Assembly (NCBI GenBank): GCA_030524545.1 | Contig: JAUNGM010000016.1 | Location: 1 to 64,000, forward strand | Source of the DNA: Eubacteriales bacterium | GTDB taxonomy: Bacteria; Bacillota; Clostridia; Lachnospirales; Lachnospiraceae | Reading direction: 5' to 3' | Length of the DNA: 64,000 nt | In this document: one piece after another, positions 882 to 28,290 of the stretch | How positions within the stretch are numbered: the first letter of the stretch is position 1 | Layout of the letters: each line of letters opens with the position of its first letter | Made by a program: the position numbers and the translations under genes | Notes under the pieces: model-generated | Database searches by the model: none | The model's input: the letters and a program-made list of their open reading frames with translations, nothing else | What the model was told of the DNA's origin: nothing

Positions 882-3800
882 TCATGATTCATTCTCGTAT
901 CTGTATCGACGTTTCAGCAAAAGCAGCGTCAGTACTGTCGTGCCAAGAGCAATCAGCAGAAGCAGAACAAGACGGCTGTCCGGGAGACCGGTAGGTATTA
1001 CCCCCTCATTCTTATTGGTATAGGTTACATCCGTGCCATTTTCCGCCACCTTTCCGCTGGAAGCACTGCCGTCCTGACCGGACTCTGAATCCGCCCTCGT
1101 AACAGGTGTCCCACCGGACTCTGTAACCGTGTTAGAAATGGTATACTCCTCAATTCCCGTTCTGCTTTCCCGAATCACAAAGGAGGTTCCTACCGGAAGG
1201 CCCTTTATGGTGAGCATTTCATTATGGCCCAGAGTAAATTTGTTCTGCAGCGTCTCATCTCCGATTTTAAACGCTGCATTTCCATCGCCATTGAAGACAA
1301 CGTTTCCCACATTCTGAGCCGTACCGTCCGCATAATGCATTTCCAGATTATATTCACCTGTCAGATTTTTTGTCTCATAGCAAAAATCCCGGACAGTAAA
1401 AGTAAACTCCTTCGCCTTGTTTCCAAAGTTTCCTGTTACCTGCTTGGACACAGACAAATCAGCAGTAGGAAGGGTATTAGTAAACGCAACAACCGGATCC
1501 TCATTTACCGCAACCTTCTGCTCCCCTGTATATGCCACGACAATTTTCTTCTCTTCTCCCGAAGAAACTGTACCGGAACTACCCGCTTTTTCTCCTGAAC
1601 CCGTGCCGGAGTACAATTCCTGCCCTGTCCGGGAATCCACAGCTTTCCAGGAGCCGATATACTTCTTATTGGAACTCACCTCAGTAATCTCATATGACGC
1701 ACCAGCAGGAATATCAGTGAATTCTACCGCAGCATCCTTTTCCATGGAAAACGTCTTTTCCGCAGCACCTTTATAATCGGCTGTCAGCACACCGACGCTG
1801 GATTTCACCTGATAGCCCTCGGTAAGGCCGGAAAACTTTATCTGGAACTCGTATTTTTCCTGTTCACCGGACTCGGAAGACGTATCCGTCAGAGGAGAAT
1901 CCACAGCTTTGGTCAGCTTCAGACTCTGGGTTCTGATAATTTCATTAGTAAAAGTAACTGTCACGGTTTCACCCGCATCCACAGTCTCCTTTGCCGTAGT
2001 CAGGACGGTATTTGTGTTCGCGTTCCCATAATAAGAAGTTACAATATTCCCGGTATTTTCCGCGTTTTCATCTTTCACCTCAAAGGATGCCCGGTAAGAC
2101 GGATCTGCTTTTTCCGTGATCCTGTAAGTACTGCCCACGGGAACCGCCTCAAACTTCACTTTTTCGTTCTGCTTCAGCGTAATGGTTACATCAGCATTAC
2201 CTGTTTCATCCGCAAAAAACGACAGATACTCCTGATAAACCGGCTGTACTGGTGCCTCCCCTCCGCTTTCGGAATCGGAGACCGCAGCCGCCTTTCGGAT
2301 ATAATACCTGGTGTTTAACTCAAGTCCGGTAAGCGCTGCATACATTACGTACTCCGTATCCGCCCCGGCTTGGCCTGCCACCTTCTTTTCCAGGAAAAAG
2401 TCCCGGGTCTCTTTTGGCTGGATCACATTCCTGTAGGAAACCTCTGCAGTTTTATCAGCAGGAATCACACCGGATGCAGTCACTGTGCCGTTTATAGTAC
2501 CCTGAGCATTAGTCACCGTACAGGTTGCTGACACATCTCCTGCTGCTTTTTCTGTAATCGTAAAGTGATACCCTTTCGGAATCTTAGAAAATACGACAGT
2601 ATCGCCCGCATTCGAACTGCCGGAGGTCAGGAATACGGCTGCCGTACCGTTTTCAAAAACAGCATCCCCGTAAATTGCCGTACCTTTCAGCGGTTCGTTG
2701 TTTTCATCTGTAAGCGTCACCGTAAACTCATATCGTGTTCCGGAACCAGTAATCTGTGTTTCTGCTCCATCAGCCGTCGTTTTAAACACCTTTTTGTTTA
2801 GTGCAAGGCTGCCATAAGCAGGCGGGATATATTCCTCGCTTTTCAGTTTGTTGGTAATTGTGACCGATCCTCCCTCTTTCACTTCAAGCGGATGTGCTTT
2901 ATCACCGACTTTTTTCCCGTCCACCTCTACAATCTCATAACCAACCGGAACAACATCTTCCCAGGCATACCAGACAGCATCATCTACTTCAAATGTATAA
3001 GTCCACACATTGCCGTTCTTTTCTAATGTATAAAGCCCTTTATCTTTGTCAGCCCTTGTAGATACTTCAACCTTTGTACCTGTTGTGCCGCCGGCTTGTT
3101 CGTCATCGGACTCATTCGTGCCCGAGTCTCCGCTTTCAAATCCGTCATCAGATTCATTCGTATCGGAGTCTCCGCTTTCAAATCCGCTATCGGCTGATTC
3201 TCCGTCATCATTCTCCGCCTGAGCCGTTACTCCTGTCTCTCCCGCGCTTCCTAAATTTGCCGCAGACACAGAAAGCTGATCCATACTGTAGGAAACCATT
3301 GATGCGGCCGTATTGGTTTCGGAACCGGATGTCTTCTGAGCAACATCTGTAAAATATCCCTTCGCGTTTGCGCTGTCTATTCTTGCGAAAGCGGCAGTGA
3401 CATTATTGCCATTAGTCTTTACTGTAGTTCCGTTTCCGCCAGTTAAACTTGAACAATTTGAAAATATACTAGTAATAGCATACTTATTCCTAATCTGTCC
3501 AAAACAATCCTCTCTATCAGCAGCCCAAATTGTCTTCAGCGTATTGCAGCCATTAAACATACCGCCTACTGATGTTACACTGTTTGTATTAAATGAAGAC
3601 ACATCAAGTTCTTTCAGCATCATGCAGTTATTAAACATGGTTTCCATGTTTGTAACTTTTGCTGTATTAAAATTGGATATATCAAGATACTCCAGGTTCT
3701 TACAGTCATAAAACATATGCTGCATAGTCGTCACTTTTGACGTATCAAAATTTGAAAGATCCAGGCGCCTTAAAGTCTTACAATATTCAAACATCTGCGC

Positions 3801-10709: not shown

Positions 10710-10748
10710 CTACTTCCCCCCTTTCTGCTTTTTCTCTGACTGCTGCGC

Positions 10749-11507
10749 TTACCTGTCTGTTTCTTTCCCTTTCCTCTTTACCGCGGCAAATGGTACGGCC
10801 ACTCCTGCGGACAACAGCAGAAGAATAACCCAAATTGCGATATTATTCTGATCTCCTGTCTTAACATTCTCTGCTTGCTCCGGGTAGGAAGTATCTGCCC
10901 AGGGCACAGATGTCGGATTGTTTGCAAACGGAACTGATGTAGGCTCCTCTGTAATTGGGATTGGTGTCGGGTCGTCTGCAGGCGGGGTCTGCGTCGGAAT
11001 CTGTGTCGGAGTCACGGTTGGTTCCTCCGGTTCAGGTGAAATTTCACTTTCCCTATAGTAAAAATCCAACAGCTCCGGCTTGCCTTCCTGCTCTGAGTTC
11101 TCTGCCGCCACAGTACACTGCAATTCCCCTTCCTCTGACTGGAGAACAATGATAGATACATAGTAAATGTTGTGTTCATCATTGATCTTCTCACCCTGGC
11201 TGTCCAGCTCATAGACTACATATTTATACGTACCCGGTTCACTGATCTCAATCCTGAACTCTCCGGTAGCGCCATTTTTTACAGCTATTTTGCTCTGCTC
11301 CGGCATTGGAGAAATATCATCTTCCGCTTCGATCACAATCTCGTTAAAACCAGCTTCGCTTATACTGATACAAAACACCGGTATCACTGCTTCAACCGGT
11401 TCATAATAGCCCTTCGCGTGTACTTCTCCGGAAAAAGAAAGCAGGAGAAGTACACACAAGATACAAAACCAGATGTACTTGACTCTGAACATCCCAGTAT
11501 GGCTCAT
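10749..11507 (-). CDS. FctB-like minor/base pilin with proline-rich tail and KTGD anchor
   Basis: This 252-residue exported protein has a signal peptide ending near VHA-KG (about 31), one pilin isopeptide-linkage-like domain (about 40-150, with GEFRIEISEPGTYKYVVYEL resembling the E-box part of Spy0128/FctA domains), then a Pro/Thr-rich tail of PTQIP, PTPIP and PTSVP blocks. It ends NVKTGDQNN, a hydrophobic helix and KRKGKETDR. A small domain plus proline-rich tail is typical of base pilins such as FctB, GBS52 and RrgC, so a role in anchoring the fibre to peptidoglycan is inferred. Its KTGD sorting motif differs from the IPTG motifs of its neighbours, which would suit attachment by another sortase. 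The ATG has AGGAGGAGAGTACAT upstream. Confidence 0.8.
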   Translation of the reverse strand: MSHTGMFRVKYIWFCILCVLLLLSFSGEVHAKGYYEPVEAVIPVFCISISEAGFNEIVIEAEDDISPMPEQSKIAVKNGATGEFRIEISEPGTYKYVVYELDSQGEKINDEHNIYYVSIIVLQSEEGELQCTVAAENSEQEGKPELLDFYYRESEISPEPEEPTVTPTQIPTQTPPADDPTPIPITEEPTSVPFANNPTSVPWADTSYPEQAENVKTGDQNNIAIWVILLLLSAGVAVPFAAVKRKGKETDR

Positions 11508-11571: not shown

Positions 11572-12943
11572 TTATGATTCCCTTCTGCGTCCTCTGATAA
11601 CCAGAACGATAATTCCGCAGATGGCAATAAGGCCGATGAAAAGAGCCGGAAGGACGGACATGCCGATACCAGTCGGGATGACGCCTGAACGGGTGTTGGT
11701 GTAGCCGGTATAGATATCCTTGGATTCTGTTGCATTTTCCGGTACTGCTATGGTTCCTGTAGCATCATCTTTTAAACCAATGGCCGCACTATTCACCTTA
11801 AATGTTGTATTTGTCTTCTTTGTCTATACCAGATTCGGACGTATAATCCTCGGCATCTTCTATAACTTTATACTCTGTACCTTTTGCCAGTCCTTTAATT
11901 GTAATGTATTGACCGTCCTGTAAATAGAACGTGGTACTTACTATAACCGTATCAGTTTCTGATTCATCATCTTCTGCTTCATCAGTTTCTGGTCTAGTAG
12001 CTATTATTTTAGATGGATTCGTTACAGCCTTAGTAATACAGGTAGTTGCGGCATTTGGCTTTGCTGCAATGGAAGTATCTGCGTGTGATAAATCCACATC
12101 ATATACGGTTCCCACCTTAGCATTTGAGATTTCCACAGTAAATTTGAAATATTTATCCTTAGACCCCTGGTTACCTTTAACCTCTTTACCAAATGTCAAA
12201 TCTGCTGTGTCATAACTATTTTTAAATCCATCTGACTTGGTTCCGGCCTCTGCACCGTTCGGTTTTTCTGTAACATTTCCTTTTGTTGCAGCAACATTAG
12301 GTGCAGCAGTAACAGTTCCATCATACAGGACATAACCAGCAATTTTAAGACCAGTTTCAGGTGTAGTACCATCCGCATCATCAGTCGCACTTGCTTCCTC
12401 AACATATACATCAAGGGTTCTTGTATTTTTTCCCACAATCGAAAATGCTGAATCAGTTGAAAGAGCCGTTTCAGTTATGATATAGCGATATACACCCGGT
12501 TCTGAGAAACTTACCCTCGAAAAGTCAATTGTTGCATTTTGAGTTGCTATTTTTTTGTCCTGATTTTCCGAAGACGTAGTTGGATTGTTTGAAGCAAATA
12601 TAACATCATCAATACTCGGAGCTGTCACTACGCCATCGTCCGTAACCACCGCACCAGCAAGAACTGCAAGTTTCCCAGGGGTCTCAGGGTCCGCACCAAT
12701 CGCGCTTCCTGCCTCTATAGAAAACGAAAATTCAACCGGAGGCACATTGGCATTTGTATCCATTTCAAGTTCTTTCGTGAAAGTGCAGTCATCGTCATCC
12801 CCTGATATTGGTTCATATATAAACGGCGTTGGTGTTGGTGCAGGCGTTGTCGCTCCCCCTTCCGCCGCCACAGGCGTTACCGCCAGCGCTGCCATCAGCG
12901 CTGCAGTAAAAATACTGGTAAGAAGTTTCCTTTTTTTTCTCAT
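11572..12943 (-). CDS. FctA-like major pilin, split by a frameshift near 11810-11821
   Basis: The first reading frame (12943 to 11798, 381 residues) has a signal peptide and two Spy0128/FctA-type isopeptide domains. Candidate Lys residues lie in TFTKELEM and TFGKEVKGNQG, Glu in YIITETA and YKVIEDAE, and the first-domain Asn in FKNSYD. It then runs into DKEDKYNI and a stop. The other frame continues as KKTNTTFKVNSAAIG and on to the expected second-domain Asn and sorting signal YTNTRSGVIPTG, membrane helix and RGRRRES, ending at 11572. Removing one A from an AAA run at 11810-11812 or 11819-11821 joins the frames naturally. The ATG overlaps the sortase stop codon (ATGA), with AAAGGAGAGGG upstream. 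As read, the product lacks its anchor; sequencing error, a true mutation or phase variation are all possible. Confidence 0.85.
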
Positions 12944-13677
12944 AAATTTCCCTCTCCTTTGCTGTTATTATCCAGAATATAACAAAACACCAGGATTCTT
13001 GTGAGTGAATCTCCGTCTGCGCAGGTTGACAGGCCAAGGATCCGTTTTCCCTGCAGCTCAGGGCAGTCTATGTAATATTCTGCATTAGTTTTTATATATT
13101 CTTCAATCCCTTCCTCTTCGTTCGGGCTAAAGATCATATTATCTCTGGCATTTGCTTCCATACTTGCAAATACCCGGAGCGGATATTCCGCTTCTCCCGT
13201 CCTTCCGACGAGTAACGTGCCGCTGGTATGCTCCTCCAAATAGGACTGATCCAGAAAATCGTCCAGTGCGCCGAACATTTTCCCGTATTCCATATGGTGT
13301 CCATACACCAGCGAATATTCATCCGAAAAATCGGATGCATTCCTGAAATCAAGAAAGATACTTCCGGACAGAGAAAACTGTCCGTATGGATCCAGGTTAA
13401 GATATTTTGAGTTGTTGTCTGCCTGCATGACCGGATAGTCTATCCCCGTATCATCAATAGTCAGCCATGCTGCCATATCTTCCGTGATCGGAGAATCACC
13501 TGCTTCCTCTGCATTCGATGCCGTTGGCTTATATTTCAGGTAACTGTCATCTGCCGCATGGTCAAAGACATACCATGTATCATACAGACAGTATGCAACG
13601 ATCAGCAGAACCAGCAGAAATATGATAAGCAGAATCCGCTCATACAGAATGTTCAAATTTTTCCAGAAACGTCTCAA
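12940..13677 (-). CDS. Class B sortase, pilus-type
   Basis: The 245-residue membrane enzyme has one N-terminal transmembrane helix (about 13-32) and a class B sortase core. The catalytic His is in YGHHM, the Cys in LGLSTCADG and the Arg in SLTRILVFC. DYPVMQADNN and YLNLD are typical of the SrtB fold. Class B enzymes that polymerise pili are known from Streptococcus pyogenes FCT loci, where they join EVPTG/VVPTG pilins by transpeptidation. Here three neighbours carry IPTG or VPTG anchors, so a pilin polymerase is inferred. The start is a TTG two bases after the preceding stop, behind GAGGACGAAGAA; no early ATG exists. The stop overlaps the pilin start, which suggests translational coupling. 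Confidence 0.88.
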   Translation of the reverse strand: MRRFWKNLNILYERILLIIFLLVLLIVAYCLYDTWYVFDHAADDSYLKYKPTASNAEEAGDSPITEDMAAWLTIDDTGIDYPVMQADNNSKYLNLDPYGQFSLSGSIFLDFRNASDFSDEYSLVYGHHMEYGKMFGALDDFLDQSYLEEHTSGTLLVGRTGEAEYPLRVFASMEANARDNMIFSPNEEEGIEEYIKTNAEYYIDCPELQGKRILGLSTCADGDSLTRILVFCYILDNNSKGEGNL

Positions 13678-13678: not shown

Positions 13679-13951
13679 CTATTCTTCGTCCTCTTCTTCT
13701 CTTCGCTTTGATCTGATGATCAGCACAACTACAATCACGACAACGATCAGCCCCACAATGATCACAGGTGCTGCCGACATGATAATCCCTGTCGGTACTA
13801 TGATATTGCCGCTGTTTGCAAGCACTGCTGATCTGTCACTCAACGCTGCGCCAAACGGCATCCTGTCCGCTGCCATCGTTTGAACCGAAGTCAGCAGCGT
13901 GAAAAACAAAGCCGCAAGAAACGCTGTCAGAGTTTTCCTTTTTCCCTTCAT
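13679..13951 (-). CDS. Mini sortase substrate with VPTG anchor
   Basis: This exported protein of about 90 residues is little more than a signal peptide (to about TMA-AD, residue 28), a short mature segment of about 30 residues, and a sorting signal of NIIVPTG, a long Val/Ile-rich helix and RSKRREEEDEE. It lies between the signal-peptidase homologue and the class B sortase and shares their strand, so it belongs to the pilus locus. I know of no characterised homologue this small. It could be a base or cap subunit, a sortase chain terminator, or a fragment of a once longer pilin. The ATG at 13951 follows GGGGACAGGC; an in-frame GTG at 13963 is the alternative start. Confidence 0.7.
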   Translation of the reverse strand: MKGKRKTLTAFLAALFFTLLTSVQTMAADRMPFGAALSDRSAVLANSGNIIVPTGIIMSAAPVIIVGLIVVVIVVVLIIRSKRREEEDEE

Positions 13952-14005
13952 GCCTGTCCCCACATCCCTTCTTCCTTTAGAATAAATGTTTTCTTATTCT
14001 GGTAT

Positions 14006-14605: not shown

Positions 14606-14692
14606 ATAACCTCCAATTCCTGATGGTAAAAACATCCCTGCGGAATCAATCCTCTCCCTTGTTCCGCAGAGATGCCATATATCATTATACCT

Positions 14693-16820: not shown

Positions 16821-17663
16821 TCAATCCTCTCTTCCTTTCGGTTTCCTTGCGGGTACAAAAAGAATCAGCAATATAACAAACAGCAGAACCGCTCCCGCAG
16901 CGACTGCAATATACCACAGCATTTTTTCCACCGGAATGATTTCTTTTGTCTCCGTATCGGCCGGAGCCTGGACGGAAACTTTTTCCGGTGAATAATCCGT
17001 GCGCGCACCACGTACAAGAAGCCTGTGGCTGTTCACGCCATAAGGAGTGCATGTAAGAAGTGTCACATAATCCCGGCCCTGCACTACACGGATATCCTCC
17101 GTTTCCTCCGGAAGGACTACCTTAATCTGATCTACCTGATAGGCAAGAATACGGTTCAAAACATGGATGTAAAACTTATCGCCCTCTACCAACTGGTCAA
17201 GATCCGTAAAAATCTTAGCAGCCGGAAGCCCCGTATGTCCCGACAGAACACTATGGGTAGATTCCCCGCCCACAGGGAGGGAAGTCTCCTGCATATGACC
17301 GATTCCCTTCTGCAAAACCTCATCACTGATTCCATGATAGATTGGCAGATACAGTCCAAGCTTCGGAATTTCCAGATAGCCAAGTGCATCTGTCACCGCA
17401 AGAAGATCATCATACTTCGCAACGGAAGCAGAATCCCCTTTTCCGCTTAATACATTATTATATTTCACCGCATCTTCCAGCATAGCCTCCAGTGTAGAAG
17501 TATCTTCCTTCTCCACAACGGCATTATAATCGGAAATTTCCACACTGGCCGTATATTCGCAGACCCAGTTACTCACCATGGGATACCCCATAAATGCTAA
17601 ACCGGCCGCCAAAATCAGCACAATAATCAGCAGCGGCCATCTATTTTTTAAATTATGTATCAT
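16821..17663 (-). CDS. Class C (pilin) sortase, second copy
   Basis: This 280-residue sortase has N- and C-terminal transmembrane helices, as usual for class C enzymes. Catalytic residues are His in LSGHTGLPAA, Cys in TLLTCTPYG and Arg in NSHRLLVRG. It would join SpaA-type pilins through their LPXTG-like motifs. Its ATG overlaps the stop of the first sortase (ATGA), so the pair is translationally coupled. The DP[FWY] lid motif common before the catalytic core is not evident; the equivalent stretch reads YDDLLAVTDALGYLEIPKL. Two different class C sortases in one locus often divide polymerisation of the backbone from addition of minor pilins; which does which cannot be told here. Confidence 0.92.
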   Translation of the reverse strand: MIHNLKNRWPLLIIVLILAAGLAFMGYPMVSNWVCEYTASVEISDYNAVVEKEDTSTLEAMLEDAVKYNNVLSGKGDSASVAKYDDLLAVTDALGYLEIPKLGLYLPIYHGISDEVLQKGIGHMQETSLPVGGESTHSVLSGHTGLPAAKIFTDLDQLVEGDKFYIHVLNRILAYQVDQIKVVLPEETEDIRVVQGRDYVTLLTCTPYGVNSHRLLVRGARTDYSPEKVSVQAPADTETKEIIPVEKMLWYIAVAAGAVLLFVILLILFVPARKPKGRED

Positions 17664-18475
17664 CGCTTCACTCTTCTGTTAATGATGTATGCTGTAATCA
17701 CAAGTGCTACTGCAGCAATCACAATCGCTGCAATCACAAGAAGCTGGCGAACCATAGCAGCCGTCATACCACGCTGTACTGCCGCCGGACTGTTGGACAC
17801 TTCTGTCTCCTCCGGCACATAAGGAATTCTTTCCCCACGCACCAGAAGCCTGTGGCTGTTCACACCATAGGGGGTACATGTTACCAGAGTAACATAATCC
17901 TTGCCGGGTACGATTTCCAGATCTTCGGAATCTTCCGGTTCCACAGTCTTCACCATTTCCACCTGATAGGCAAGAATCTCACCAAGAACATGGATATAAA
18001 ATACATCCCCCTCTTTCATCTTATCAAGAGAAGACAAAAGTTCCGCCCCCGGCAATCCAGTATGGCCGGACATGGCAGAATTGGTATTGGCCCCTCCCAC
18101 CGGAAGGGAAGTATTCTCAATATATCCGCAGCCTTTCTTCAGAACTTCATCCGAAGTGCCGTAATAGACAGGAAGATAAACACTGATCTTGGGAATATCA
18201 AGATAACAAATTACATTGTCATTGACATTCAGACATTTATCCTCATCCTCTTGATTGGTTCCGTAATACAGGTGTGCATTGAACTGTTCGGCCATTTCCC
18301 ACATTTCCGTCACATCCGGTTCCAGGTCGCTCTCCTGCAGCACTTTCTCATAATCAGAAATCGTGACCGACGCCGTATTCAAAGTGACAAAATTTCCTAT
18401 TGAAGGATAAAGAATAGCCCCAATACCCACCAGAAATATCAGGAAAATAACGCCAATCGGGTATAGTTTCTTCAT
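17660..18475 (-). CDS. Class C (pilin) sortase, first copy
   Basis: This 271-residue sortase has transmembrane helices at about 5-27 and 240-262. The core contains His in MSGHTGLPGAE, Cys in TLVTCTPYG and Arg in NSHRLLVRGE. It lies directly downstream of the major pilin gene, the standard order in SpaA-type loci, and probably polymerises the LPGTG pilins. As in its neighbour, no DP[FWY] lid motif is visible; the segment before the core reads LNVNDNVICYLDIPKI. The ATG is preceded by AGAAAGGATGAAATTTGA. A GC-rich hairpin separates it from the pilin gene and may lower its expression relative to the pilin. Confidence 0.92.
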   Translation of the reverse strand: MKKLYPIGVIFLIFLVGIGAILYPSIGNFVTLNTASVTISDYEKVLQESDLEPDVTEMWEMAEQFNAHLYYGTNQEDEDKCLNVNDNVICYLDIPKISVYLPVYYGTSDEVLKKGCGYIENTSLPVGGANTNSAMSGHTGLPGAELLSSLDKMKEGDVFYIHVLGEILAYQVEMVKTVEPEDSEDLEIVPGKDYVTLVTCTPYGVNSHRLLVRGERIPYVPEETEVSNSPAAVQRGMTAAMVRQLLVIAAIVIAAVALVITAYIINRRVKR

Positions 18476-18570
18476 TCAAATTTCATCCTTTCTGGTTTGT
18501 TTCCCATAAAAAGATTTCTCTTCCATGAGAAGCAAAACACAAAAGATGCAGTTCTTTCATTCTACAATCC

Positions 18571-18594
18571 CCGGCCCGGGACATCCCGGGCCGG
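18571..18594. other. Perfect 10-bp GC hairpin between pilin and sortase genes
   Basis: CCGGCCCGGG, ACAT and CCCGGGCCGG form a perfect 10-bp stem with a tetraloop in the gap between the major pilin stop and the sortase start. No U-tract follows on the minus strand, so it is not a classical terminator. It could stabilise the upstream pilin mRNA after processing or reduce read-through into the sortases. Confidence 0.75.
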
Positions 18595-18649: not shown

Positions 18650-20227
18650 TTATGCCTGCTTTCTCTGTTTTTTAGTATAAACGATAAACAGAACAGCTGC
18701 AAGAATAACTAATGCCAATCCGCCAAAGGTGAAAAGTGTAGTACCGATACCACCGGTGCCTGGGAGGGTCGTACCCTTGGTATTATCAATCTGTAACGGA
18801 TCAGCTTCCGTGTTAGACCAAGTCACTGTATAAGTATTTGCAGCATTTTGATTAGCCTCTGTTCCTGTCGTTCCACTAGGTGTCACAGGATCTCCAGCTT
18901 TCTCAATTGCTGTAATTGCTGTTGAAGAAACTGTCAAAGCAATTTCCTGTGGTGTAGCATCTACACTATATCCGCTGGGTGCTTTTGTTTCTACTGCATA
19001 GTATGTGCCTGCATCCAGACCGGAAATAGAAGCTGTTCCATCTTTTCCAGTAGTAATCGTGCTGTGATAATAATATGTAACCGCACCCTCTTCCCCAACA
19101 GAAATTGTAGCATCTACTCCAGTTGGAGCAGTCGCATTGTAATTCTTTGGTCCGTAAACTGCAAATTCAGCCCCGGAAAGTTTCTTGGTCGTATCTACAC
19201 TATCAACCTTAACAATATTCAGTTTACCAGTATAAGTAATAACTGTATCTTCTGGTGTCTTATGAGTTGTGTTTTCATCCCAGTTATTTGTATACGTAAG
19301 GTCAACTGAGTTCGGATTGCCTGTGCTGCCAACATTTGCAGAGGTGTTTAATGTTCCGCTAAGTGTTACACGTACGGCACCGCCTGGTGTTGCAATTACT
19401 TTATCACTTGAAATTGTAATAGTAATTGTTTGTCCAGATATGCTTACAGCTCCCTCTTTTTTATATGGCGTATAATTTTCTTCATTGGTTCCTTTAATTG
19501 CTACTGTAACATCTTTGGCCTCACATGGAGTTAAGCCTGCAGACATAGTATCAGTAATTGTATAAGTTACATCAGTCGCATAGGATGGATATTCCGGAAT
19601 TGTCGCATCAATCTGATAGGTAACGATATCCCCAATCGCAACCACATTATCATCAACTAATGTATCTGCAGCATCTGCGCCGTCAACATTTGTCGTTGAA
19701 TTCTCCAGAACAATCTTTTTGGTAATAGATGGTTCACTTGTTTTAAGAGTTACTGTCTCAGCCTCTTTATCAACTGCAACAAGAATATATTTCGTAGCAA
19801 GCTTTGCATCATTGGATGCATGGGCAGTTTCTTTAATCAGATAATAACCTGTCTTTAATCCAGTTACAGTTCCATCGGTAACCTTACTAGCAATGGGATT
19901 TGCAGTAATACTAGCAAGAGTATTTGATAAAGTAACCAACTCATCAGCTCCCATGTTCTTCACTGCATCTGGATTAAACTGGTCAGCATATGCATCTGCT
20001 ACAACAATGTTTGTATATACTGTACTATTTGTCTCACCTTCCGTAAGAGTTTCTACATCAAATGTAGCAATTTGATAAACACTATATGTATTTCCGATTC
20101 CATTTGTGATTGTTAACGTAGAACTTCCACCTTGCTGGCTATCTGTTGCAAAAACAGTTACTGTCATTGCTAATACCATAACAACTGATAATAACAATGC
20201 TAAACATTTCTTTAAGTTATTCTTCAT
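18650..20227 (-). CDS. SpaA-type major pilin with LPGTG anchor
   Basis: The 525-residue backbone pilin has a signal peptide (to VFATDS), an N-terminal domain (about 30-170), a second Ig-like domain beginning PSITKKIVLEN with GDIVTYQIDATIPEY, and a C-terminal Cna-B domain (KLNIVKVDS, E-box YYAVETKAPSGY). It ends LPGTGGIGTTL, helix and YTKKQRKQA. This architecture is that of SpaA/FimA/RrgB-type fimbrial backbones with internal isopeptide bonds. The usual YPK pilin motif is not present; Lys residues in VTLKTSEP or SITKKI are the nearest candidates for the intermolecular bond. The ATG at 20227 follows AAAGGTG with normal spacing, and an in-frame GTG at 20236 is less likely. It is followed by two class C sortases. 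Confidence 0.92.
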   Translation of the reverse strand: MKNNLKKCLALLLSVVMVLAMTVTVFATDSQQGGSSTLTITNGIGNTYSVYQIATFDVETLTEGETNSTVYTNIVVADAYADQFNPDAVKNMGADELVTLSNTLASITANPIASKVTDGTVTGLKTGYYLIKETAHASNDAKLATKYILVAVDKEAETVTLKTSEPSITKKIVLENSTTNVDGADAADTLVDDNVVAIGDIVTYQIDATIPEYPSYATDVTYTITDTMSAGLTPCEAKDVTVAIKGTNEENYTPYKKEGAVSISGQTITITISSDKVIATPGGAVRVTLSGTLNTSANVGSTGNPNSVDLTYTNNWDENTTHKTPEDTVITYTGKLNIVKVDSVDTTKKLSGAEFAVYGPKNYNATAPTGVDATISVGEEGAVTYYYHSTITTGKDGTASISGLDAGTYYAVETKAPSGYSVDATPQEIALTVSSTAITAIEKAGDPVTPSGTTGTEANQNAANTYTVTWSNTEADPLQIDNTKGTTLPGTGGIGTTLFTFGGLALVILAAVLFIVYTKKQRKQA

Positions 20228-20319
20228 ACCATTCACCTTTCCTTCTTATATAGTTTTTGGTTCCCGGTTTCCCGGTGCTTTTCCACCGTTTTGTGTGGTT
20301 TTAGGCATTATTTAGTTGT

Positions 20320-23300
20320 TTAGTTTTCTGACCGTTTGCCTCCTTTCCCTGCATCTATTGGTGTATTTCTTTTCTTAAAGGTCAGGAGCATCCATGCTGC
20401 AGATATCAGCAGGAATGCACATCCTAAACCATAAAAGACAAATGGGTACTTGGAGCCAGTGCCCGGGAGGGTAATACCAGCCTTATTTCTTGTATTGGTG
20501 ATTATAATTGTTCCATCGGAAGTTTTAGCATTCTTTCCTGAAGACACTTCATTTGAATCCCCTATCCGATATGTTGTAGTATAGTTCGTCAAATCACTAC
20601 CATTATATTGTGCTTTCGTTTCCACTACATAATAATAACCTTCCGGCAAATCATTCCATGTGTAAGACCATTGATTGTTATCCAATACAATAGGATTGTC
20701 TTGTTCTTGGCACACTACCGGATTTCCAGCAGCATCATACAATGTAACCTCTGCCGTATATCCTTCATGGCTTTCCACTTCATCACTCCATTTTTTCTGT
20801 ACAGTAATGCTGGTTTTTATCTCATCCTTTGTATTTGTGATTGTTACCTTATCAATTCCTTTTTCGGAATCTCCATCCTTATACGTGATATTATATTCCG
20901 CGCTGTAACCGCTAACCTCTTCTTCCACCGCATAATAATAATAGAGATTTCCATTTTCATCTGTCTTATCAAGATCTGACCAATCAGCCTTCCAGCCATT
21001 GCCTTCACCTAATACTTTATCTATGCCTGCGCCCATATATTCCGCATTGGAAGTTTGCAACTCTATTCCATCAACAGTAAGTATCAAATTTTCTGCAATA
21101 TCAACTAAATCACTACTTGCGGAAGATAATAAAACAGCCGTCTCTGGTTCGCTTAATATTGATTTTACACTAACATTATTATCAATCAGATTTGCATTAG
21201 CTATACCACTATAGCTAATGGCTACATTTATTATTCCACTTCCTGTAATTTGGGGCTTATATCCATTACCGTCATGATAAAGAAGCACCTCCGTAATGAT
21301 ATTCTCATTTGGGTGAATTTTAGCATCCGTGAGCTTGTATACTTGATCAGTCCCCCCGTTTGAATCTACTACTACATCTGTCCATCCATTTGAACTTCGT
21401 AATATAGCAGTACCAACCAAATTCCAACTTGTATCACGTATGAATACCTCAACATATACATCTTCATTATCACAAGGGATCCCATTCACATCACCATTCC
21501 AAGAATATACATTTACTTCAATTCTATTTCCATCAGTCGGTATTGGGGTCGGTGTTGCAATCGGTTCCACTGTTGGGGTTGGTGTTGCAATCGGTTCCAC
21601 TGTTGGGGTTGGAGCAAGAGCCTGTAATGGCGTAATTGTTCTATACAATCTTACCGTCACATCTGGCTTTCCTGTTGGATTATTATCATCCCAAATCTTC
21701 TCTACAGAAATCTCTGTGGAATCTTCATGGTTTATAATAACAATCGTTCCTCCCGTTGTTGTTATGTTAGAAGATATTTCTGATGATAGACTTTCATCTT
21801 CGCTGTCAGAAGATGTTTCTGATGGCGAATTCCCACCTGTGCTATCAGATACTTCCAATTGATAAGTAACTTTAGAGTAGTCTTCTACCATTTCAACTTC
21901 TTCGACATAATAGCTTCCTTTCGGAAGGTTTTTCCACGTGTAACTCCAGCCAGCATCCCCATAATTTTCTTCATTATTATGTGTACTGCCAAGTTTTATC
22001 ACATCATTAATAGGCTGTGCTTTACCATCCTCCCCTTGTTTATAAAGCTGTACTTTAATATCAGGAAGCGTAGTTGATATTTTTTCGATACCATTAGCAG
22101 AAACCCATTTTTTCTTTACAGAAATTTCTGTGGTTTCTCCAGTATTTGTGATTGTGATTGTCCCTTCGGTGACACTAGCATTTACTGCGTCTTCCACAGC
22201 ACTTTCTAAGATTGTATTGGAATACGTTACGGTATAACTTTCCAATACATCAACTTCGCCAATCTTAGCAACAGTTTCAACCACGTAATACTCAGGGCCC
22301 TTAGGCACAGACCACGTATAGCTTAGTACACCATTTATATTGGCCAAAGTAACTTCTTCGCCAATCTGAATATCTTCTCCTCCCTCTGCTTTCTGATATA
22401 GTTTTGCTTTTACTGTGTAATTCGAATGATCTGTAATATTATCATCCCATACTTTATTAACTGTTATAGATGTCTTTTCCCCTTCATCATCTGAAGAATT
22501 CGTAATTGTTACTTTCTCAACCTTTTTTAATTCTGCATCAGGGTCTTTGACATCATAACTGTAGGCTGTTTTATATCCGGTAATTTCACCTGAACCATCC
22601 GTGCCTTCTAATACATAGTAATAGAAATCTCCATCCAGTTTATTCCAGGTGTATTCCCAGCCAGTGGCACTGTAATAACCTGTTTCAGTACTTTTTGATG
22701 CATACTCGGAGCCAAGATTAATGGTTTCAACTTGATTCTTATCACTTGGAAGCAGCCATGAGCGTGTATCTGCAGGGCTTTCTAATTGCTTTATTTCAAC
22801 CACATAATCCCCATCATTAAAAGAATTGCCAATCGTCAAATCCAACGACATATTTTCGACTACAGAATCAATTTTATAAGTAGTTACATCCGCCTTTTTT
22901 GTCCCCCAACTTACCTGATAATCAACTACCTCCGTAGAGCCAGTATAGCTTATTCCTGAATAAATTAACTTCTGTGAATTAGAACTTTGCCATACATCTA
23001 TAACCTTAATTTCGGCTGACGCTCCTACCTGGATATTCTCTGAGAAAACACCTTTCACTCCGCTATCCCATGAAGTTTCATATTTTAAATTCACATTTAC
23101 CGTACAGTTTTCTATCTCTTCCGGTTCTCTTTCCGGAACAACTCCTGATTTTGACCGATATAAGGTGACAGGAATTTCAGGATGAACTCCTCCGGTACTG
23201 GCATCCCAGATTTTTTTTACGGATACACTCGCTCCTTTAGAATTTTTAAGAGTAACTGTTCCACCTACGACAGTACCATTCTGGTCACTTTCCATAATGA

Positions 23301-26300
23301 AAGTATCATTTATAGGCACTTCTGATCCATCATTTAAAGTTGCATCTGCCTCTTCCTTAACATAGTAATAGTATTTTTTATATGTTGGACTGCTTACCTC
23401 TTCACCATTATCTTTTGGTAAATCACCAAATAAAGCATACCATCCATTTTCCACACTTAGAGTAGCGGGATTTGTCAGACCATCTGATGTATAAACCACA
23501 CCGTTTTCCGTATCATTTTCATTTGTAGTCTGATACAGTGTGGCCTGAATGCTATTAATAATATTTCCATCTTTATCGGTAATTGCCTCCCCAGATAAAG
23601 CCGTTCCGTTTTCATCGTACCATTCTTTCTGAACGGCTATGGAAGTTTTCGTCTCATCACCCTTCTTATTTTTTATTGTGATGTAGCCGGATTTTATTTC
23701 TTGAGCTACATCCGGATATCCTTCGGGATAGTGCATCGCTGTTATCCTGGAATCACTAAGGTAAAAATAATATGGCTCATCCATACAAATATAATTCGTT
23801 GGCGCCTTGGTTTCCACCAAACGATAGGCACGATTTGCTTCCAGCCCAGTCAACTTAAGCGTTCCTTCTTCTCCTGTCAGAAGATTCTCCTTAACCAAAA
23901 CCCAGTTCGCGTTATCCGTTCTCCAGTTTGTGTTATTCAACTCGCCCTCGTACTCTTCCAACCTGAATTCCGCTCCTCGCAAGGTTACTGCCGCATTATC
24001 CTCATCAACCTTTACCAAAGTAACATCCTTTGTACTAGCATAAGCACTACTTCCGTTACTCTCCTTTTCATCTACCACTTCACTGTCGTCTGACCCAATC
24101 CTGCTGCCTTCCACAGTAATGGAATTAGTTATATCGTAAACATAATATGTTTTTCCATCTTCACCTGTTACAGTGCTAAAGTTCACACCGTCAGCAACAT
24201 CATTTCCTATTGCTCTATCGTCAATCGAGTAGACATATGTGTATTCCAAAATATATGGCTGGCCATCTTTTAAATAAATTTCCATCTCAAACTTTTTATT
24301 TCCGGCGCTATCAGTCTTTTCTCCATATTGCACCGTATACAAAGACTTATCAATCTCTGCGCCTTTGCCTGAGGATGTTAATTTATATAGATGAATAGAA
24401 TTTTCCTTTAAATCCACCGCCTTCATATATTTATCATATGTAATAGAATCTACCAGATTAATATCTGTTCCTCCATCCAGTACAGCACCTGACGGATTTA
24501 CGACCACCTGATACGAAGTCTCTCTAGAACTATTATCAGATTGTCCATTGAAATTCTTTACTACATATGAAGATACAACGGTATCTGTGACGCTATCCTC
24601 TGCCTTTTTCTCCCCGTTTATATAAATTTCTGCTTTGTTTGTATAGAGATTTTCGGATGTACTATCCTGTTTGCTGTCAATCTGGGCAGCATAGAAAATA
24701 TAAAGCATATATGACCCATTTGTACTATGGTCTTCACCATTATCTGTCAACCATAGCAAATCTCCTGGTATCTCTATCGTGAGTTCCCTCGTAATCGGAT
24801 CATAACTTTGACTTATATAATCATTAATATCTATTTCTCCACTAACCTTTTGTCCATTTATTATTCCACTATTTACACCCGTAGCACAGAACATACTACT
24901 TGGTTGATTAGCGTCTTTTAAGAAATAGCATTTAACAATTCTGTCATTCTCAATACTGCCATATACACTGCCGTAAATGCCATTCTTTTCTCTAATATTG
25001 TACGGCAACTGATATAACGTTGTTCCTTCTGGAAGTATATCTTTTACTACGATATTTCCACAATCATTTGTAAACTGTCTTGTTTCATTAACAACGATTG
25101 CATAATATAAAACCCCTTTACAGTCGTCATATACATAATTACCGTTATTACCGCCTGCATCAAGTTTCTTTATATACCCACCTGAGGATACTTTCTTACT
25201 ATCTGATGAAGATGTACGTCCATTATCCTGCTCAAATTCTCCTGTATTTACAAAATTCCATGTGTTACCATTCTTCATACCACTGAGATCAGCCGTAGTC
25301 TTATAATCAAGAACTACTGCCGTATAATTCTTCGGAATATTTTGCAAAAATACTATCCTGAATTTGGTATAGGTAAAATCGCCGGATGAATCAGGAAAAT
25401 CTACCCAAGTATTAGAAGAATCCAATACCTGTATTTTATAATAATCATTACTTAATGGATCTGTGTTTAAAGTATCATATTCGTTCTTCGTTAATACCCT
25501 AAGCCCTGAAAGTTGTTCCGAAGTAATATAATGACTATTATTCGCAGAATACGGTTCGGCAGATATGGTATCTGTATAAATGGCATTTGCTTTTATCCCA
25601 TCTTTAGGAGGCACAATTGTTGCATTCCATCTATAATGTTTTATATTTGGATCTCCTTCCACATCCTCCGTTTCTTCTGTTTTTCCATCCGGGGCAACGT
25701 ACTTTTTACTCAGCACACCCTTATCGTGGGTAACTTCCTGAGGAATACCGCCTGTTGAAAAATCTTTTCCATCCCCTCCCAATGATGCTGTATTTTCATA
25801 TTTACTATAAAATCCAACTTCACTTACATCGGTTTCATAAGTTATTTCAAATCTGCTTGTAGGACTATAGATATCGCCTTCATTTTCTGCTTTTGCATTA
25901 CCTCCGGCACTATCAAATGTAAAAGGCAGCACGATTGTATACTTCTTCGATGAACCACCATTGGCCGGATATTCTATCATAGTTATTTCATTTGGAAGCG
26001 AGATTTCTGCAGAATCTTTTTTCAAGACATCACTCAAAGTATATCCGCTTAAGTCGCCGCCAAAGTCATTCAATGATATTGTCCAGATAATCTTATCTTT
26101 CGAAGAATCATAGTATGCCTTTTTTGATAGGTATGTATGATTTAAATAAATTGTTACTTCTTTCTCCGATTGGTGATACTGATCAGAAACATGAGCCTTA
26201 TTTTTTAATTCAATACTTTGATTAAGATTTTCCAAACCTGAATAATCTACTTTGTAAGTCAGTTCATAAGAACAGCCCGCAGCCAAATCCGGCAATTTCT

Positions 26301-28290
26301 TATTCTCATCCTTAAGAACAATTTTTCCCTCGTTTGTCACCTGAAAATACTCATCAAAGCCCAGCTCTGTTTCATTTCCCTGTGCATCCTTTCTAACCAG
26401 CTTCGAACCAGCAGGTATCGACCCTGTTACGCCAGCAGGCAGATTAAGCGTATCTTCTAAAGTAATTCCTCCGGAAGTTCCATCATCAGTACCGATAGTG
26501 ACTTTATAGTCCGCAATACTTTGTTCCGAATCATACGTGTATTCCTTTGTTACATTAATATCGTATTTATCTTCCTCACGTCCAGGTGTATCATCCTGTT
26601 GTTTTTTTATGATAATTTCTGTTTTTATATTATTGGTCTCCGAAAAGGAATACTCTATTTTTTCTTCATCTTTGGTTCCGTTTGTTTCCAGTTTTGACCA
26701 AAAAGAAATACCTCCATTAATAACATTTCCACTATCAATAAAACTTTGATTCAGGTTTATCGTAATCTTACCATCTGAAGTAATTTCATATGTGCCCACA
26801 CCATTACCGCCGCCATCATAGACAGTTCCTGCGTAATTCTGGTTTGGATTTATCCCTTCCGGAATATCATACGTTAATTTTGTGGTACCAAAGTTCTTCA
26901 ATACACTGGCATAAATTTCATATTCAATAGTAACTTCAATACTTTTTCCTTCTAACACCTCTGTTTTATCAAAAGTCGCATTTGTAATATAATCCGTTAA
27001 ATCAACAGAACTGCCTACTGCGGCGCGTAATATCATCCGCATCATTGTTCCAGTCGTCTGTGGTTCACCTTCAATGATAGCAGTAGCCCTTGCCGCATAT
27101 TCATCTGTGTTCTCTGTTTCATTTTGAATTACATCTATATCCGATTGCTGATTCTTTTCCTCCTCACCATCAAGGCTTTCTTCCGCCTCTTCATCTTCTT
27201 CTGTTTCAAAAATTGCATTTTCCACATCTTCGGTTGAATCTTCTTCGTCCTCTAATACTACAAAATCACCTTCACCTTCATCTGCACTGCCAACCTCTTC
27301 AATATCATCAATAACAGGTTCTTCTTCCGTAAAAATCGTTTCTTCAGAAAGAACAGGAATTTCAGTTGGTGCAGGATTCACTGCAGAAGCCGGGTTTTCT
27401 GTTGGGGTGATTCCCTCCGTTGGAACCGCCTCTTCTGTTGAAGTGGGTTCATCCGTTACAGCCGGCTCTTCGACTGGAGTGATTTCCTCTTCTACTCCGG
27501 GTTCTTCTATCTGCTCCGGTTCTTCAGTTGGTGTTTCATCCATATTTTCGGTATTGTCTTCTTCAAAAGAAACTTCCGGAGAAACAGCGGCTGCAGCCCA
27601 ATTCAAGTCTGCCTGTCCTGCTGTCGTCCAGGCGGCTGCGTTTGCATCATACCATTCAGCAGTAATTGTGCTGACACTATCTGTCTCTATATTTCCGGCA
27701 GATACTGTAAAATCTGCAGAAATCTGTCCGTCTCCGGTTTTGTCATAAGTAAGCAGGACACGATCAGTATTCTGAGGATCTGTGCTCAGCATCATTGGGA
27801 GACCGGATCCGTCTGCTGCCGGGACGTGACAGATGCCTTCACTGTCAGCCATCATAGCTTCCGGCAGAGCTGCATATGTTATGCTGTCCATACCAAGAGC
27901 AAGGGACACGCTCTGATCCTGTGCGTTCTGAATATTCCATTCGATATGGAGATCATATGTATTCTCCGGATTCTCTACGTCTGCAGCATTCAAAACTGCT
28001 GTTACGGATGGAGGTGTAATCATGTCCTCATCCGGAACAAGAACGGCGGGTTCCGAAGCATCAGAAAAAAGACCGCTCTCATCTGTCGATCCTGATGTAA
28101 AATCTTCTGTTCCGCTGCCTGATGATATGTCGGTTCCATCCGAAAATACATCGATTCCTGCTGCCATGCTTGTATCATCTGAGGGTATCAGGTCACCGCT
28201 TGGAATATCCGAAGCCGCTACCTGACTGCATAACATAGTCGCAGCCAGAATCAATGAGACTCCTGTTCTGAAATAATTATGCTTTCTCAT
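20320..28290 (-). CDS. Giant SpaA-pilus adhesin with LPGTG anchor
   Basis: This protein of about 2656 residues is the first gene of the pilus block. It has a signal peptide (ending about VAASD), a small N-terminal domain, a Thr/Pro/Glu-rich acidic stalk (about 245-390), a long region of Ig-like adhesin domains (about 420-1430), a SpaA domain with LRGAEFRLEEYEGEL, and six Cna-B domains whose first strands read VQKEW, VKKIW, VNKVW, VKKKW, VEKIW and VQKKW (near 1550, 1690, 1945, 2055, 2190 and 2490). It ends ITLPGTGSKYPF, helix and FKKRN. The LPGTG matches the major pilin, so it is inferred to be the tip adhesin. The ATG at 28290 is taken as start; an in-frame TTG at 28299 lies closer to the GGGAAGCGAG ribosome site. 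Confidence 0.9.
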   Translation of the reverse strand: MRKHNYFRTGVSLILAATMLCSQVAASDIPSGDLIPSDDTSMAAGIDVFSDGTDISSGSGTEDFTSGSTDESGLFSDASEPAVLVPDEDMITPPSVTAVLNAADVENPENTYDLHIEWNIQNAQDQSVSLALGMDSITYAALPEAMMADSEGICHVPAADGSGLPMMLSTDPQNTDRVLLTYDKTGDGQISADFTVSAGNIETDSVSTITAEWYDANAAAWTTAGQADLNWAAAAVSPEVSFEEDNTENMDETPTEEPEQIEEPGVEEEITPVEEPAVTDEPTSTEEAVPTEGITPTENPASAVNPAPTEIPVLSEETIFTEEEPVIDDIEEVGSADEGEGDFVVLEDEEDSTEDVENAIFETEEDEEAEESLDGEEEKNQQSDIDVIQNETENTDEYAARATAIIEGEPQTTGTMMRMILRAAVGSSVDLTDYITNATFDKTEVLEGKSIEVTIEYEIYASVLKNFGTTKLTYDIPEGINPNQNYAGTVYDGGGNGVGTYEITSDGKITINLNQSFIDSGNVINGGISFWSKLETNGTKDEEKIEYSFSETNNIKTEIIIKKQQDDTPGREEDKYDINVTKEYTYDSEQSIADYKVTIGTDDGTSGGITLEDTLNLPAGVTGSIPAGSKLVRKDAQGNETELGFDEYFQVTNEGKIVLKDENKKLPDLAAGCSYELTYKVDYSGLENLNQSIELKNKAHVSDQYHQSEKEVTIYLNHTYLSKKAYYDSSKDKIIWTISLNDFGGDLSGYTLSDVLKKDSAEISLPNEITMIEYPANGGSSKKYTIVLPFTFDSAGGNAKAENEGDIYSPTSRFEITYETDVSEVGFYSKYENTASLGGDGKDFSTGGIPQEVTHDKGVLSKKYVAPDGKTEETEDVEGDPNIKHYRWNATIVPPKDGIKANAIYTDTISAEPYSANNSHYITSEQLSGLRVLTKNEYDTLNTDPLSNDYYKIQVLDSSNTWVDFPDSSGDFTYTKFRIVFLQNIPKNYTAVVLDYKTTADLSGMKNGNTWNFVNTGEFEQDNGRTSSSDSKKVSSGGYIKKLDAGGNNGNYVYDDCKGVLYYAIVVNETRQFTNDCGNIVVKDILPEGTTLYQLPYNIREKNGIYGSVYGSIENDRIVKCYFLKDANQPSSMFCATGVNSGIINGQKVSGEIDINDYISQSYDPITRELTIEIPGDLLWLTDNGEDHSTNGSYMLYIFYAAQIDSKQDSTSENLYTNKAEIYINGEKKAEDSVTDTVVSSYVVKNFNGQSDNSSRETSYQVVVNPSGAVLDGGTDINLVDSITYDKYMKAVDLKENSIHLYKLTSSGKGAEIDKSLYTVQYGEKTDSAGNKKFEMEIYLKDGQPYILEYTYVYSIDDRAIGNDVADGVNFSTVTGEDGKTYYVYDITNSITVEGSRIGSDDSEVVDEKESNGSSAYASTKDVTLVKVDEDNAAVTLRGAEFRLEEYEGELNNTNWRTDNANWVLVKENLLTGEEGTLKLTGLEANRAYRLVETKAPTNYICMDEPYYFYLSDSRITAMHYPEGYPDVAQEIKSGYITIKNKKGDETKTSIAVQKEWYDENGTALSGEAITDKDGNIINSIQATLYQTTNENDTENGVVYTSDGLTNPATLSVENGWYALFGDLPKDNGEEVSSPTYKKYYYYVKEEADATLNDGSEVPINDTFIMESDQNGTVVGGTVTLKNSKGASVSVKKIWDASTGGVHPEIPVTLYRSKSGVVPEREPEEIENCTVNVNLKYETSWDSGVKGVFSENIQVGASAEIKVIDVWQSSNSQKLIYSGISYTGSTEVVDYQVSWGTKKADVTTYKIDSVVENMSLDLTIGNSFNDGDYVVEIKQLESPADTRSWLLPSDKNQVETINLGSEYASKSTETGYYSATGWEYTWNKLDGDFYYYVLEGTDGSGEITGYKTAYSYDVKDPDAELKKVEKVTITNSSDDEGEKTSITVNKVWDDNITDHSNYTVKAKLYQKAEGGEDIQIGEEVTLANINGVLSYTWSVPKGPEYYVVETVAKIGEVDVLESYTVTYSNTILESAVEDAVNASVTEGTITITNTGETTEISVKKKWVSANGIEKISTTLPDIKVQLYKQGEDGKAQPINDVIKLGSTHNNEENYGDAGWSYTWKNLPKGSYYVEEVEMVEDYSKVTYQLEVSDSTGGNSPSETSSDSEDESLSSEISSNITTTGGTIVIINHEDSTEISVEKIWDDNNPTGKPDVTVRLYRTITPLQALAPTPTVEPIATPTPTVEPIATPTPIPTDGNRIEVNVYSWNGDVNGIPCDNEDVYVEVFIRDTSWNLVGTAILRSSNGWTDVVVDSNGGTDQVYKLTDAKIHPNENIITEVLLYHDGNGYKPQITGSGIINVAISYSGIANANLIDNNVSVKSILSEPETAVLLSSASSDLVDIAENLILTVDGIELQTSNAEYMGAGIDKVLGEGNGWKADWSDLDKTDENGNLYYYYAVEEEVSGYSAEYNITYKDGDSEKGIDKVTITNTKDEIKTSITVQKKWSDEVESHEGYTAEVTLYDAAGNPVVCQEQDNPIVLDNNQWSYTWNDLPEGYYYVVETKAQYNGSDLTNYTTTYRIGDSNEVSSGKNAKTSDGTIIITNTRNKAGITLPGTGSKYPFVFYGLGCAFLLISAAWMLLTFKKRNTPIDAGKGGKRSEN
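21551..21610. repeat. Perfect 30-bp tandem duplication in the giant LPGTG adhesin gene
   Basis: Units 21551-21580 and 21581-21610 are identical and encode a ten-residue Pro/Thr/Val/Glu linker (PTVEPIATPT, in register) on the minus strand, inserted within the fifth Cna-B domain. The perfect identity suggests a recent duplication. Confidence 0.9.

What the first reader, a model, noticed from the sequence alone, without database searches (positions are those of the whole stretch)
882..28290. Two mechanistically different sortase pilus systems fused in one 27-kb block
A SpaA-type set (LPGTG pilin, giant LPGTG adhesin, two class C sortases, KTGD base-like subunit) is followed on the same strand by an FCT/T-antigen-like set (SipA-like protein, class B sortase, IPTG pilin, Pro-rich subunit, giant IPTG adhesin). 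Gaps are short and the only clear terminator for this strand is at the end (847-879). Each type is known separately; their tandem union under one leader could give a hybrid fibre or two fibres in fixed ratio. Each set has its own sorting motif matching its own sortase class.
Basis: partly seen in the sequence, partly recalled or inferred. Interest (0 to 1): 0.85.

Follow-up and report, generated by a model that had tools for sequence, protein, structure and literature searches.

The report
Two neighbouring but separate pilus operons
A bacterium carries two ordinary kinds of sortase-built pilus gene sets side by side, with a likely transcription stop between them and an apparently broken main pilin gene in one, so this looks like a neighbourhood rather than a fused machine.

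Summary
The genes are real. Set 1 (minus strand, 28299-14693) is a class C sortase pilus operon: giant LPGTG adhesin, SpaH/EbpB-type pilin, two class C sortases, KTGD base. Set 2 (14605-882) is of the group A Streptococcus FCT/T-antigen kind: SipA-like protein, 94-aa mini-protein, class B sortase, FctA-like pilin, FctB-like base, giant IPTG adhesin. The "fused under one leader" reading is not borne out. (2) No class C sortase was hit beside set 2's sortase in 62 named loci, or near it in 36 other genomes that carry one. (3) The FctA-like frame is broken in this assembly: its IPTG signal lies in another frame, while one ORF holds both pieces in 44 of 55 relatives. Set 2's sortase groups with two Lachnospiraceae MAGs, not with the nine same-genus ones, which suggests but does not prove transfer. 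Each set is a known kind; I found the tandem only here. Both bases end in KTGD, so one sortase may anchor both. Transcription, fibres and the reality of the frame break are untested.

The parts
20320..28299 (-). Set 1: giant adhesin, 2659 aa (TTG start as listed), LPGTG signal, SpaA and Cna_B domains
   Evidence: PF17802 2.1e-15 and PF05738 3.9e-14
18650..20236 (-). Set 1: major pilin, SpaH/EbpB type, LPGTG
   Evidence: NF033902 117.9 bits, cut-off 95; solved relatives 5xcc, 6ixy
18571..18594 (-). 10-bp all-GC hairpin between major pilin and first sortase; no U-tract on this strand; one place in the genome at up to 3 mismatches
17660..18475 (-). Set 1: class C sortase 1
   Evidence: NF033745 229 bits, cut-off 160; PDB class C sortases
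16821..17663 (-). Set 1: class C sortase 2, overlaps the previous gene by 4 nt
   Evidence: NF033745 259 bits
14693..16858 (-). Set 1: base-like subunit, SpaA domains, KTGD signal (TTG start as listed, overlapping the sortase)
   Evidence: PF17802 2.8e-29; sequence
14628..14675 (-). Terminator-like hairpin plus U-tract between the two sets
   Evidence: -24.0 kcal/mol in the scan; -24.7, z -6.56; -24.1, z -5.28; sequence
14006..14605 (-). Set 2: SipA-like protein (ORF listed from 14635; ATG 14605 after GGAGG is likelier); Gly at the catalytic Lys position
   Evidence: 4n31 SipA 3.8e-20; Gly column; start
13679..13963 (-). Set 2: 94-aa mini-protein, signal peptide + VPTG sorting signal, between sipA and srtB where many relatives have fctA; GTG start as listed
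12940..13677 (-). Set 2: class B sortase, closest solved relative 3psq; TTG start as listed
   Evidence: 2.7e-32; TIGR03064 141.9 bits, under its cut-off of 153.75; tree
11798..12943 (-). Set 2: FctA-like pilin, first piece; frame ends before the sorting signal
   Evidence: PF24547 3.7e-12; T18.1 pilin 1.4e-12
11572..11823 (-). Set 2: out-of-frame remainder of the FctA-like pilin (stop-to-stop frame) with IPTG, membrane span and charged tail
10749..11507 (-). Set 2: FctB-like, proline-rich base subunit, KTGD
   Evidence: PF12892 2.6e-05; position and signal as in relatives
882..10709 (-). Set 2: giant adhesin, 3275 aa, IPTG, PARCEL/DUF285 repeats, SpaA and DUF7601 domains
   Evidence: long match to the giant gene that follows fctB in L041 and L045
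849..876 (-). Terminator-like hairpin at the end of set 2
   Evidence: -18.3 kcal/mol in the scan, -22.1 to -24.0 with flanks
28611..28735 (-). Two terminator-like hairpins upstream of set 1
   Evidence: 28735-28700 and 28646-28611
28622..29533 (+). Divergent LytTR-domain regulator, candidate regulator of set 1 (true start probably inside the listed ORF)
   Evidence: PF04397 1e-10; role inferred from position only

Best explanation
These are two separate sortase-pilus operons of known kinds that lie next to each other in this genome. Set 1 would build a class C pilus: class C sortases link SpaH-type pilins, with the giant LPGTG protein as adhesin and the KTGD protein as base. Set 2 derives from a stand-alone FCT/T-antigen-type operon, in which a SipA-like protein and a class B sortase join FctA-like pilins through an (I/V/L)PTG signal, with a giant adhesin and an FctB-like base. 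Transcription from set 1 most likely ends largely at the hairpin 14675-14628. Because the set 2 pilin frame is broken before its sorting signal, set 2 probably makes no normal fibre in the sequenced strain, if the break is real. Shown here: gene identities by family, the break in the assembly, the hairpin sequence, absence of the tandem in the sampled relatives. Inferred: termination, independent expression, gain of set 2 from another lineage, loss of set 2 function, anchoring of both bases by one housekeeping sortase.
For: Families and solved relatives of the parts. Hairpin at the junction, -24.0 kcal/mol in the scan; 10 shuffles of the strand stretch gave 4 rows of -14 or better in all, against 5 rows (4 distinct hairpins) observed; alone z -6.56. 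Order sipA-fctA-srtB-fctB in 33 of 62 loci; a sipA-like hit in 51 of 62. A giant gene homologous over long stretches follows fctB in L041 and L045, 2 of the 10 loci compared. No class C sortase hit in any of the 62 loci (35 of 62 have 5 kb or more on both sides), nor in 9 same-genus stretches of 14-20 kb. None near the class B sortase in 36 other genomes, of which 22 have a class C sortase over the cut-off and 30 any match; the closest on one contig is about 179 kb (G004). Tree: window with L039/L040, support 100/97, outside the clade that holds all 9 same-genus rows. One ORF holds both FctA pieces in 44 of 55 relatives. Searches of the own genome with DUF7601 and FctA profiles give no second pilin of this kind.
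Against: No transcript data; such hairpins can be leaky, and the 87 nt between base stop and likely sipA start leave little room for a promoter. A TATAAT at 14689-14684 has no good -35 (by eye). So set 2 may depend on read-through. The frame break could be an assembly error. Many relatives are short MAG contigs (27 of 62 loci lack 5 kb on one side or both), so some adjacencies may be hidden. A hairpin plus U-tract within 450 nt upstream of sipA also occurs in 17 of 57 relatives, so the junction hairpin may be a set 2 leader element rather than the end of set 1. A same-family genome (G370) carries a 53% sortase in the window's larger clade, so descent within the family is not excluded.
Confidence: 0.75

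Rival explanations
1. One polycistronic operon with tuned read-through: the junction hairpin and the GC hairpin after the major pilin act as partial terminators or processing sites that set the ratio between the two pili.
For: Same strand and short gaps. No good promoter seen before sipA. The GC hairpin 18594-18571 has no U-tract, so it is not a classic terminator. An attenuation-like control is reported for a streptococcal pilus (PMC3894217; only title and start of abstract seen, listings).
Against: The junction hairpin is as strong as the one at the end of the block, with a clean U-tract. The tandem is not conserved in the sample. The set 2 pilin is broken in this assembly.
Confidence: 0.18
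2. The frame break in fctA is a sequencing or assembly error and set 2 is functional next to set 1 (two independent pili). This does not exclude the two-operon reading, only its last step.
For: The second piece keeps a normal IPTG signal, membrane span and charged tail, and its 83-codon frame is open, as expected if the break is very recent or artificial. The other genes of set 2 are open.
Against: The 26-nt overlap of the two frames has no homopolymer longer than three (sequence), a poor place for an indel error. The mini-protein between sipA and srtB is a second oddity in this set. No reads to check.
Confidence: 0.35
3. A true hybrid fibre: class C and class B sortases co-polymerise pilins of both sets.
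For: Co-location; both sets end in a KTGD base subunit.
Against: Different sorting signals and sortase classes in each set. Set 2-like operons stand alone in relatives. Broken pilin.
Confidence: 0.03

Closest known systems
Group A Streptococcus FCT-2/3/4 pilus (Cpa, SipA/LepA, FctA, SrtC of class B, FctB)
   Same: SipA-like protein without the catalytic Lys, class B sortase closest to 3psq, T-antigen-like pilin, small proline-rich base protein (PMC7900414, PMC4049620, PMC3019223, passages)
   Different: Adhesin is a 3275-aa IPTG protein encoded last; signal is IPTG, where GAS Spy0128 has EVPTG; base signal is KTGD; a mini-protein precedes srtB; fctA follows srtB and is broken here
Stand-alone sipA-fctA-srtB-fctB operons of Clostridia (L041, L045 and others)
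   Same: Same genes; in L041 and L045 a giant gene follows that matches the window's (30.6% over 1820 aa and 26.8% over 1915 aa); same kinds of base signal
   Different: No class C set beside them; fctA in one ORF; in the nearest sortase relatives L039/L040 the order is long surface protein, pilins, fctB, sipA, srtB
SpaA/SpaH/Ebp-type class C sortase pilus operons
   Same: LPGTG major pilin with isopeptide domain, two class C sortases, base and giant adhesin; this genome has two more loci of such sets, on C69 and C52
   Different: Base signal KTGD; no D-P-aromatic lid motif seen by eye in the sortases (motif recalled, no call)

Membership tests
GAS FCT/T-antigen-type class B pilus | class B pilin polymerase with N-terminal but no C-terminal membrane anchor (PMC3019223, passages) | tested here: met
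   3psq best hit; anchors read from the sequence by eye. Under the cut-off of TIGR03064, the NCBIfam class B equivalog
GAS FCT/T-antigen-type class B pilus | SipA/LepA homologue lacking the Ser-Lys dyad (PMC4049620, passages) | tested here: met
   Best hits 4n31, 4k8w. The Lys column is Gly here and in 55 of 59 relatives with a letter there; the Ser column is Ser here and in 32 of 57, where GAS SipA has Asp, so only the Lys half of the dyad is lost
GAS FCT/T-antigen-type class B pilus | FctA/T-antigen backbone pilin with sorting signal | tested here: inconclusive
   Pilin piece matches T-antigens but its sorting signal is out of frame in this assembly
GAS FCT/T-antigen-type class B pilus | FctB-like base subunit in the operon | tested here: met
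   PF12892 match, KTGD end, position as in relatives
GAS FCT/T-antigen-type class B pilus | Polymerisation by the sortase with SipA | not testable with these tools
   needs wet work
Class C (SpaA/Ebp) pilus operon | class C sortase(s) with C-terminal membrane anchor | tested here: met
   NF033745 over cut-off for both; C-terminal hydrophobic spans read by eye
Class C (SpaA/Ebp) pilus operon | LPXTG major pilin with isopeptide-forming domain | tested here: met
   NF033902 and TIGR04226 over cut-off
Class C (SpaA/Ebp) pilus operon | lid over the active site (D-P-aromatic motif, recalled; not universal) | tested here: inconclusive
   motif not seen by eye in either sortase (printed); no structure made
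Single co-transcribed two-pilus operon | no terminator between the sets | tested here: not met
   terminator-like hairpin + U-tract 14675-14628; its activity is untested
Single co-transcribed two-pilus operon | tandem kept in relatives | tested here: not met
   0 of 62 loci, 0 of 36 other genomes; limited by contig ends

The most novel reading that the evidence does not exclude
The junction hairpin is a controlled gate that couples a class C and a class B pilus, both anchored by one housekeeping sortase through the shared KTGD base signal; the mini-protein, which has no lysine after its signal peptide and so could donate but not accept a sortase link, caps or primes the class B fibre tip, and the fctA frame change switches that fibre off in part of the population.
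Probability: 0.04. Interest if true: 0.7.

Novelty: new member of a known kind. Interest (0 to 1): 0.28.

Why it matters
One scan gave 62 loci in Clostridia with a relative of this class B sortase, 51 of them with a SipA-like gene hit. That is a wide base for asking why some pili use SipA and a class B sortase, which the GAS review says remains to be addressed (PMC7900414, passages). For the finding itself it is mainly a caution: same-strand neighbours with short gaps are not thereby one machine.

Tried and rejected
Rfam scan of the whole window at gathering thresholds: no match. Base composition by gene does not separate the two sets: GC3 is low in both pilins (0.242, 0.285) and in giant 1 (0.301) and 0.40-0.55 in the others. 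The promoter scans gave counts near the shuffles; the terminator part of these scans missed the junction hairpin, whose loop is longer than the 8 nt they allow. Neighbourhood of tex: of 12 same-genus stretches fetched (9.7-19.9 kb, three cut short by contig ends), only G022 has a class C set there, and its gene order is that of the G000 C69 locus, not of this block; none has the class B set. Replacement pilin elsewhere in the genome: DUF7601 also matches a C71 ORF without sorting signal and a 2381-aa frame on C69; the FctA profile matches only the FctB-like gene and a 1937-aa frame on C52; pilins of other families would escape these two searches. The C52 peptidase next to a class C base is not SipA-like: both catalytic residues are present. 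Conservation of the junction hairpin before sipA: 17 of 57 relatives have some hairpin plus U-tract there, no uniform one. Mini-protein in relatives: only same-strand ORFs of 60-170 aa within 7 kb of srtB in the 62 loci with a PxTG-type motif were listed; 4 rows, judged chance frames by eye; the nine same-genus loci were not scanned for it. Structure prediction, fold search, viral and metagenome scans were not used. Seven literature searches: judged from titles and abstract starts of the listings, none describes such a tandem or class B pili of Lachnospiraceae; PMC8088525 (a Clostridium perfringens pilus) was listed and not opened. Three papers were seen in passages only. On rechecking, the claim that the junction hairpin is stronger than the end one was dropped, and the count of intact fctA relatives was redone (45 of 55 by frame alone; 44 of 55 in one ORF).

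Full report
What is there. The block 28299-882 on the minus strand holds eleven ORFs of interest. Set 1, in order of transcription: giant LPGTG protein 28299-20320; major pilin 20236-18650; class C sortases 18475-17660 and 17663-16821; base-like KTGD protein 16858-14693. Set 2: SipA-like 14605-14006 (ORF listed from 14635); mini-protein 13963-13679; class B sortase 13677-12940; FctA-like pilin 12943-11798, frame broken; FctB-like protein 11507-10749; giant IPTG protein 10709-882. That genome has eight sortase matches to PF04203: five of class C by NF033745, the class B sortase of this block, and two on C32 and C49 that match it at 29% and 32%.

The junction. My scan folded U-tract contexts on the minus strand from 29000 down to 800 and gave nine rows at -9 kcal/mol or better; two rows are the same junction hairpin. 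The most stable row is 14675-14632, -24.0 kcal/mol, followed by U; folded alone with two more bases it has z -6.56, 0 of 200 shuffles as good. It starts 17 nt after the base-subunit stop and ends before the likely sipA ribosome site. Ten dinucleotide shuffles gave 0-5 rows each and 4 rows of -14 or better in all, against 5 rows (4 distinct hairpins) observed. The scan gave -18.3 for the end hairpin and -18.6 and -19.5 for the two upstream of set 1. Folded with flanks all four are alike: -24.1, -22.1, -23.4 and -22.0, and the end one reaches -24.0 in a wider cut. A second hairpin, all GC, lies between the major pilin and the first sortase but has no U-tract on this strand and no second copy in the genome at up to 3 mismatches. 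A TATAAT at 14689-14684 lacks a good -35 by eye, so no promoter of set 2 was identified.

Relatives. A scan of GTDB contigs with the class B sortase gave 62 loci; 18 of the 62 titles name a gut site of a ruminant (my count). The order sipA-fctA-srtB-fctB is seen in 33 of 62; sipA-fctA-srtB in 7; fctB-sipA-fctA-srtB in 6; fctA-fctB-sipA-srtB in 3; the other 13 show fewer hits, partly because contigs end there (distances were not limited, and in L074 sipA and fctA lie about 8 kb from the matched srtB). No class C sortase is hit at 1e-4 in any of the 62; 35 of 62 have at least 5 kb on both sides and 24 have about 10 kb. Nine same-genus stretches of 14-20 kb around class B pilus sortases also show none. 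Giant proteins were compared in 10 loci: L041 and L045 match the window's giant over long stretches (30.6% over 1820 aa; 26.8% over 1915 aa), L043, L053 and L063 only over short ones, the other five not. With seven further same-genus genomes this gives 36 other genomes; 30 of the 36 have some NF033745 match and 22 one over the cut-off. None has one near its class B sortase; only four (G004, G028, G366, G384) have both on one contig, the closest about 179 kb apart (G004). I read these distances from the two tables by eye. Contig breaks could hide some cases.

Origin of set 2. In a tree of 101 sortase rows the window groups with L039 and L040 (100/97), inside a 34-row clade (98/95), while all nine same-genus rows fall in another 30-row clade (97/80). 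Same-genus matches reach 42% at best; L039/L040 reach 69%. This fits horizontal gain of set 2. Against it, G370 of the same family, 53% identical, lies in the window's larger clade, and loss in congeners is not excluded.

The broken pilin and the mini-protein. The FctA-like ORF stops at 11798 without a sorting signal; an overlapping frame, 11823-11572, carries the rest with IPTG, a membrane span and a charged tail. Searched apart, the two pieces lie in one ORF in 44 of the 55 loci with an FctA match at 1e-10 or better. Of the other 11, ten have no hit to the second piece, nine of these ending in a xxTG-type tail of their own by a loose pattern, and one (L083) was unclear. DUF7601 and FctA profiles find no replacement pilin in the genome. 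Whether the break is real or an assembly error cannot be told here. The mini-protein has a signal peptide and a VPTG signal; its end is closest to that of a long surface protein in L040 (52% over 48 residues). After the signal peptide (cleavage judged by eye) and before VPTG I see no lysine. A limited scan of relatives found no such gene. A deletion remnant is the simplest reading.

Sorting signals. In 71 loci (62 plus 9 same-genus), FctA-like ORFs of up to 900 aa end in IPTG[V/I] in 40 of 63; FctB-like ORFs end in xTG[D/E] in 41 of 49 and KTGD in 19 of 49, 2 of the 49 having no motif (my tally). In the window both base proteins have KTGD, and so do the base-like proteins on C52 and C69. A common wall-anchoring sortase is a plausible inference.

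SipA. The catalytic Lys position is Gly here and in 55 of 59 relatives with a letter there (60 of 71 loci have a hit); the Ser position is Ser here and in 32 of 57. GAS SipA has Asp and Gly at these places and no peptidase activity was detected (PMC4049620 passages). The protein here therefore probably acts without peptidase activity too (inference).

Verdict. Two known kinds of pilus operon side by side, with a strong terminator-like hairpin between them, a neighbourhood found in no other genome sampled, and a second operon that is impaired if the assembly is right. Interest is low to moderate.

Noticed in passing
13679-13963: 94-aa protein with signal peptide and VPTG sorting signal but no pilin body and no lysine in the mature part (by eye), between sipA and srtB; not found in relatives by a limited scan.
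   Followed up: partly
28622-29533: Divergent LytTR-domain regulator next to set 1; facing it, a GGDEF protein with solute-binding and PAS domains (29526-31436).
   Followed up: no
18571-18594: Perfect 10-bp GC hairpin between major pilin and sortase genes, single copy in the genome, no U-tract on the coding strand.
   Followed up: partly
L102 (G000:C69) 381-14964 and L206 (G022:C35) 4552-18592: Class C pilus loci with the same gene order (sortase, KTGD base, a regulator-like gene by eye, giant adhesin, pilin, sortase) in two species of the genus; in G022 it lies beside tex.
   Followed up: partly
L101 (G000:C52) 2-10400: Third class C locus in the own genome, with a signal peptidase that keeps both catalytic residues between base and adhesin genes.
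   Followed up: partly
52-693: Rpn/PD-(D/E)XK family protein directly after the set 2 terminator.
   Followed up: no
882-10709: PARCEL/DUF285 leucine-rich repeats inside a 3275-aa sortase-anchored adhesin.
   Followed up: no
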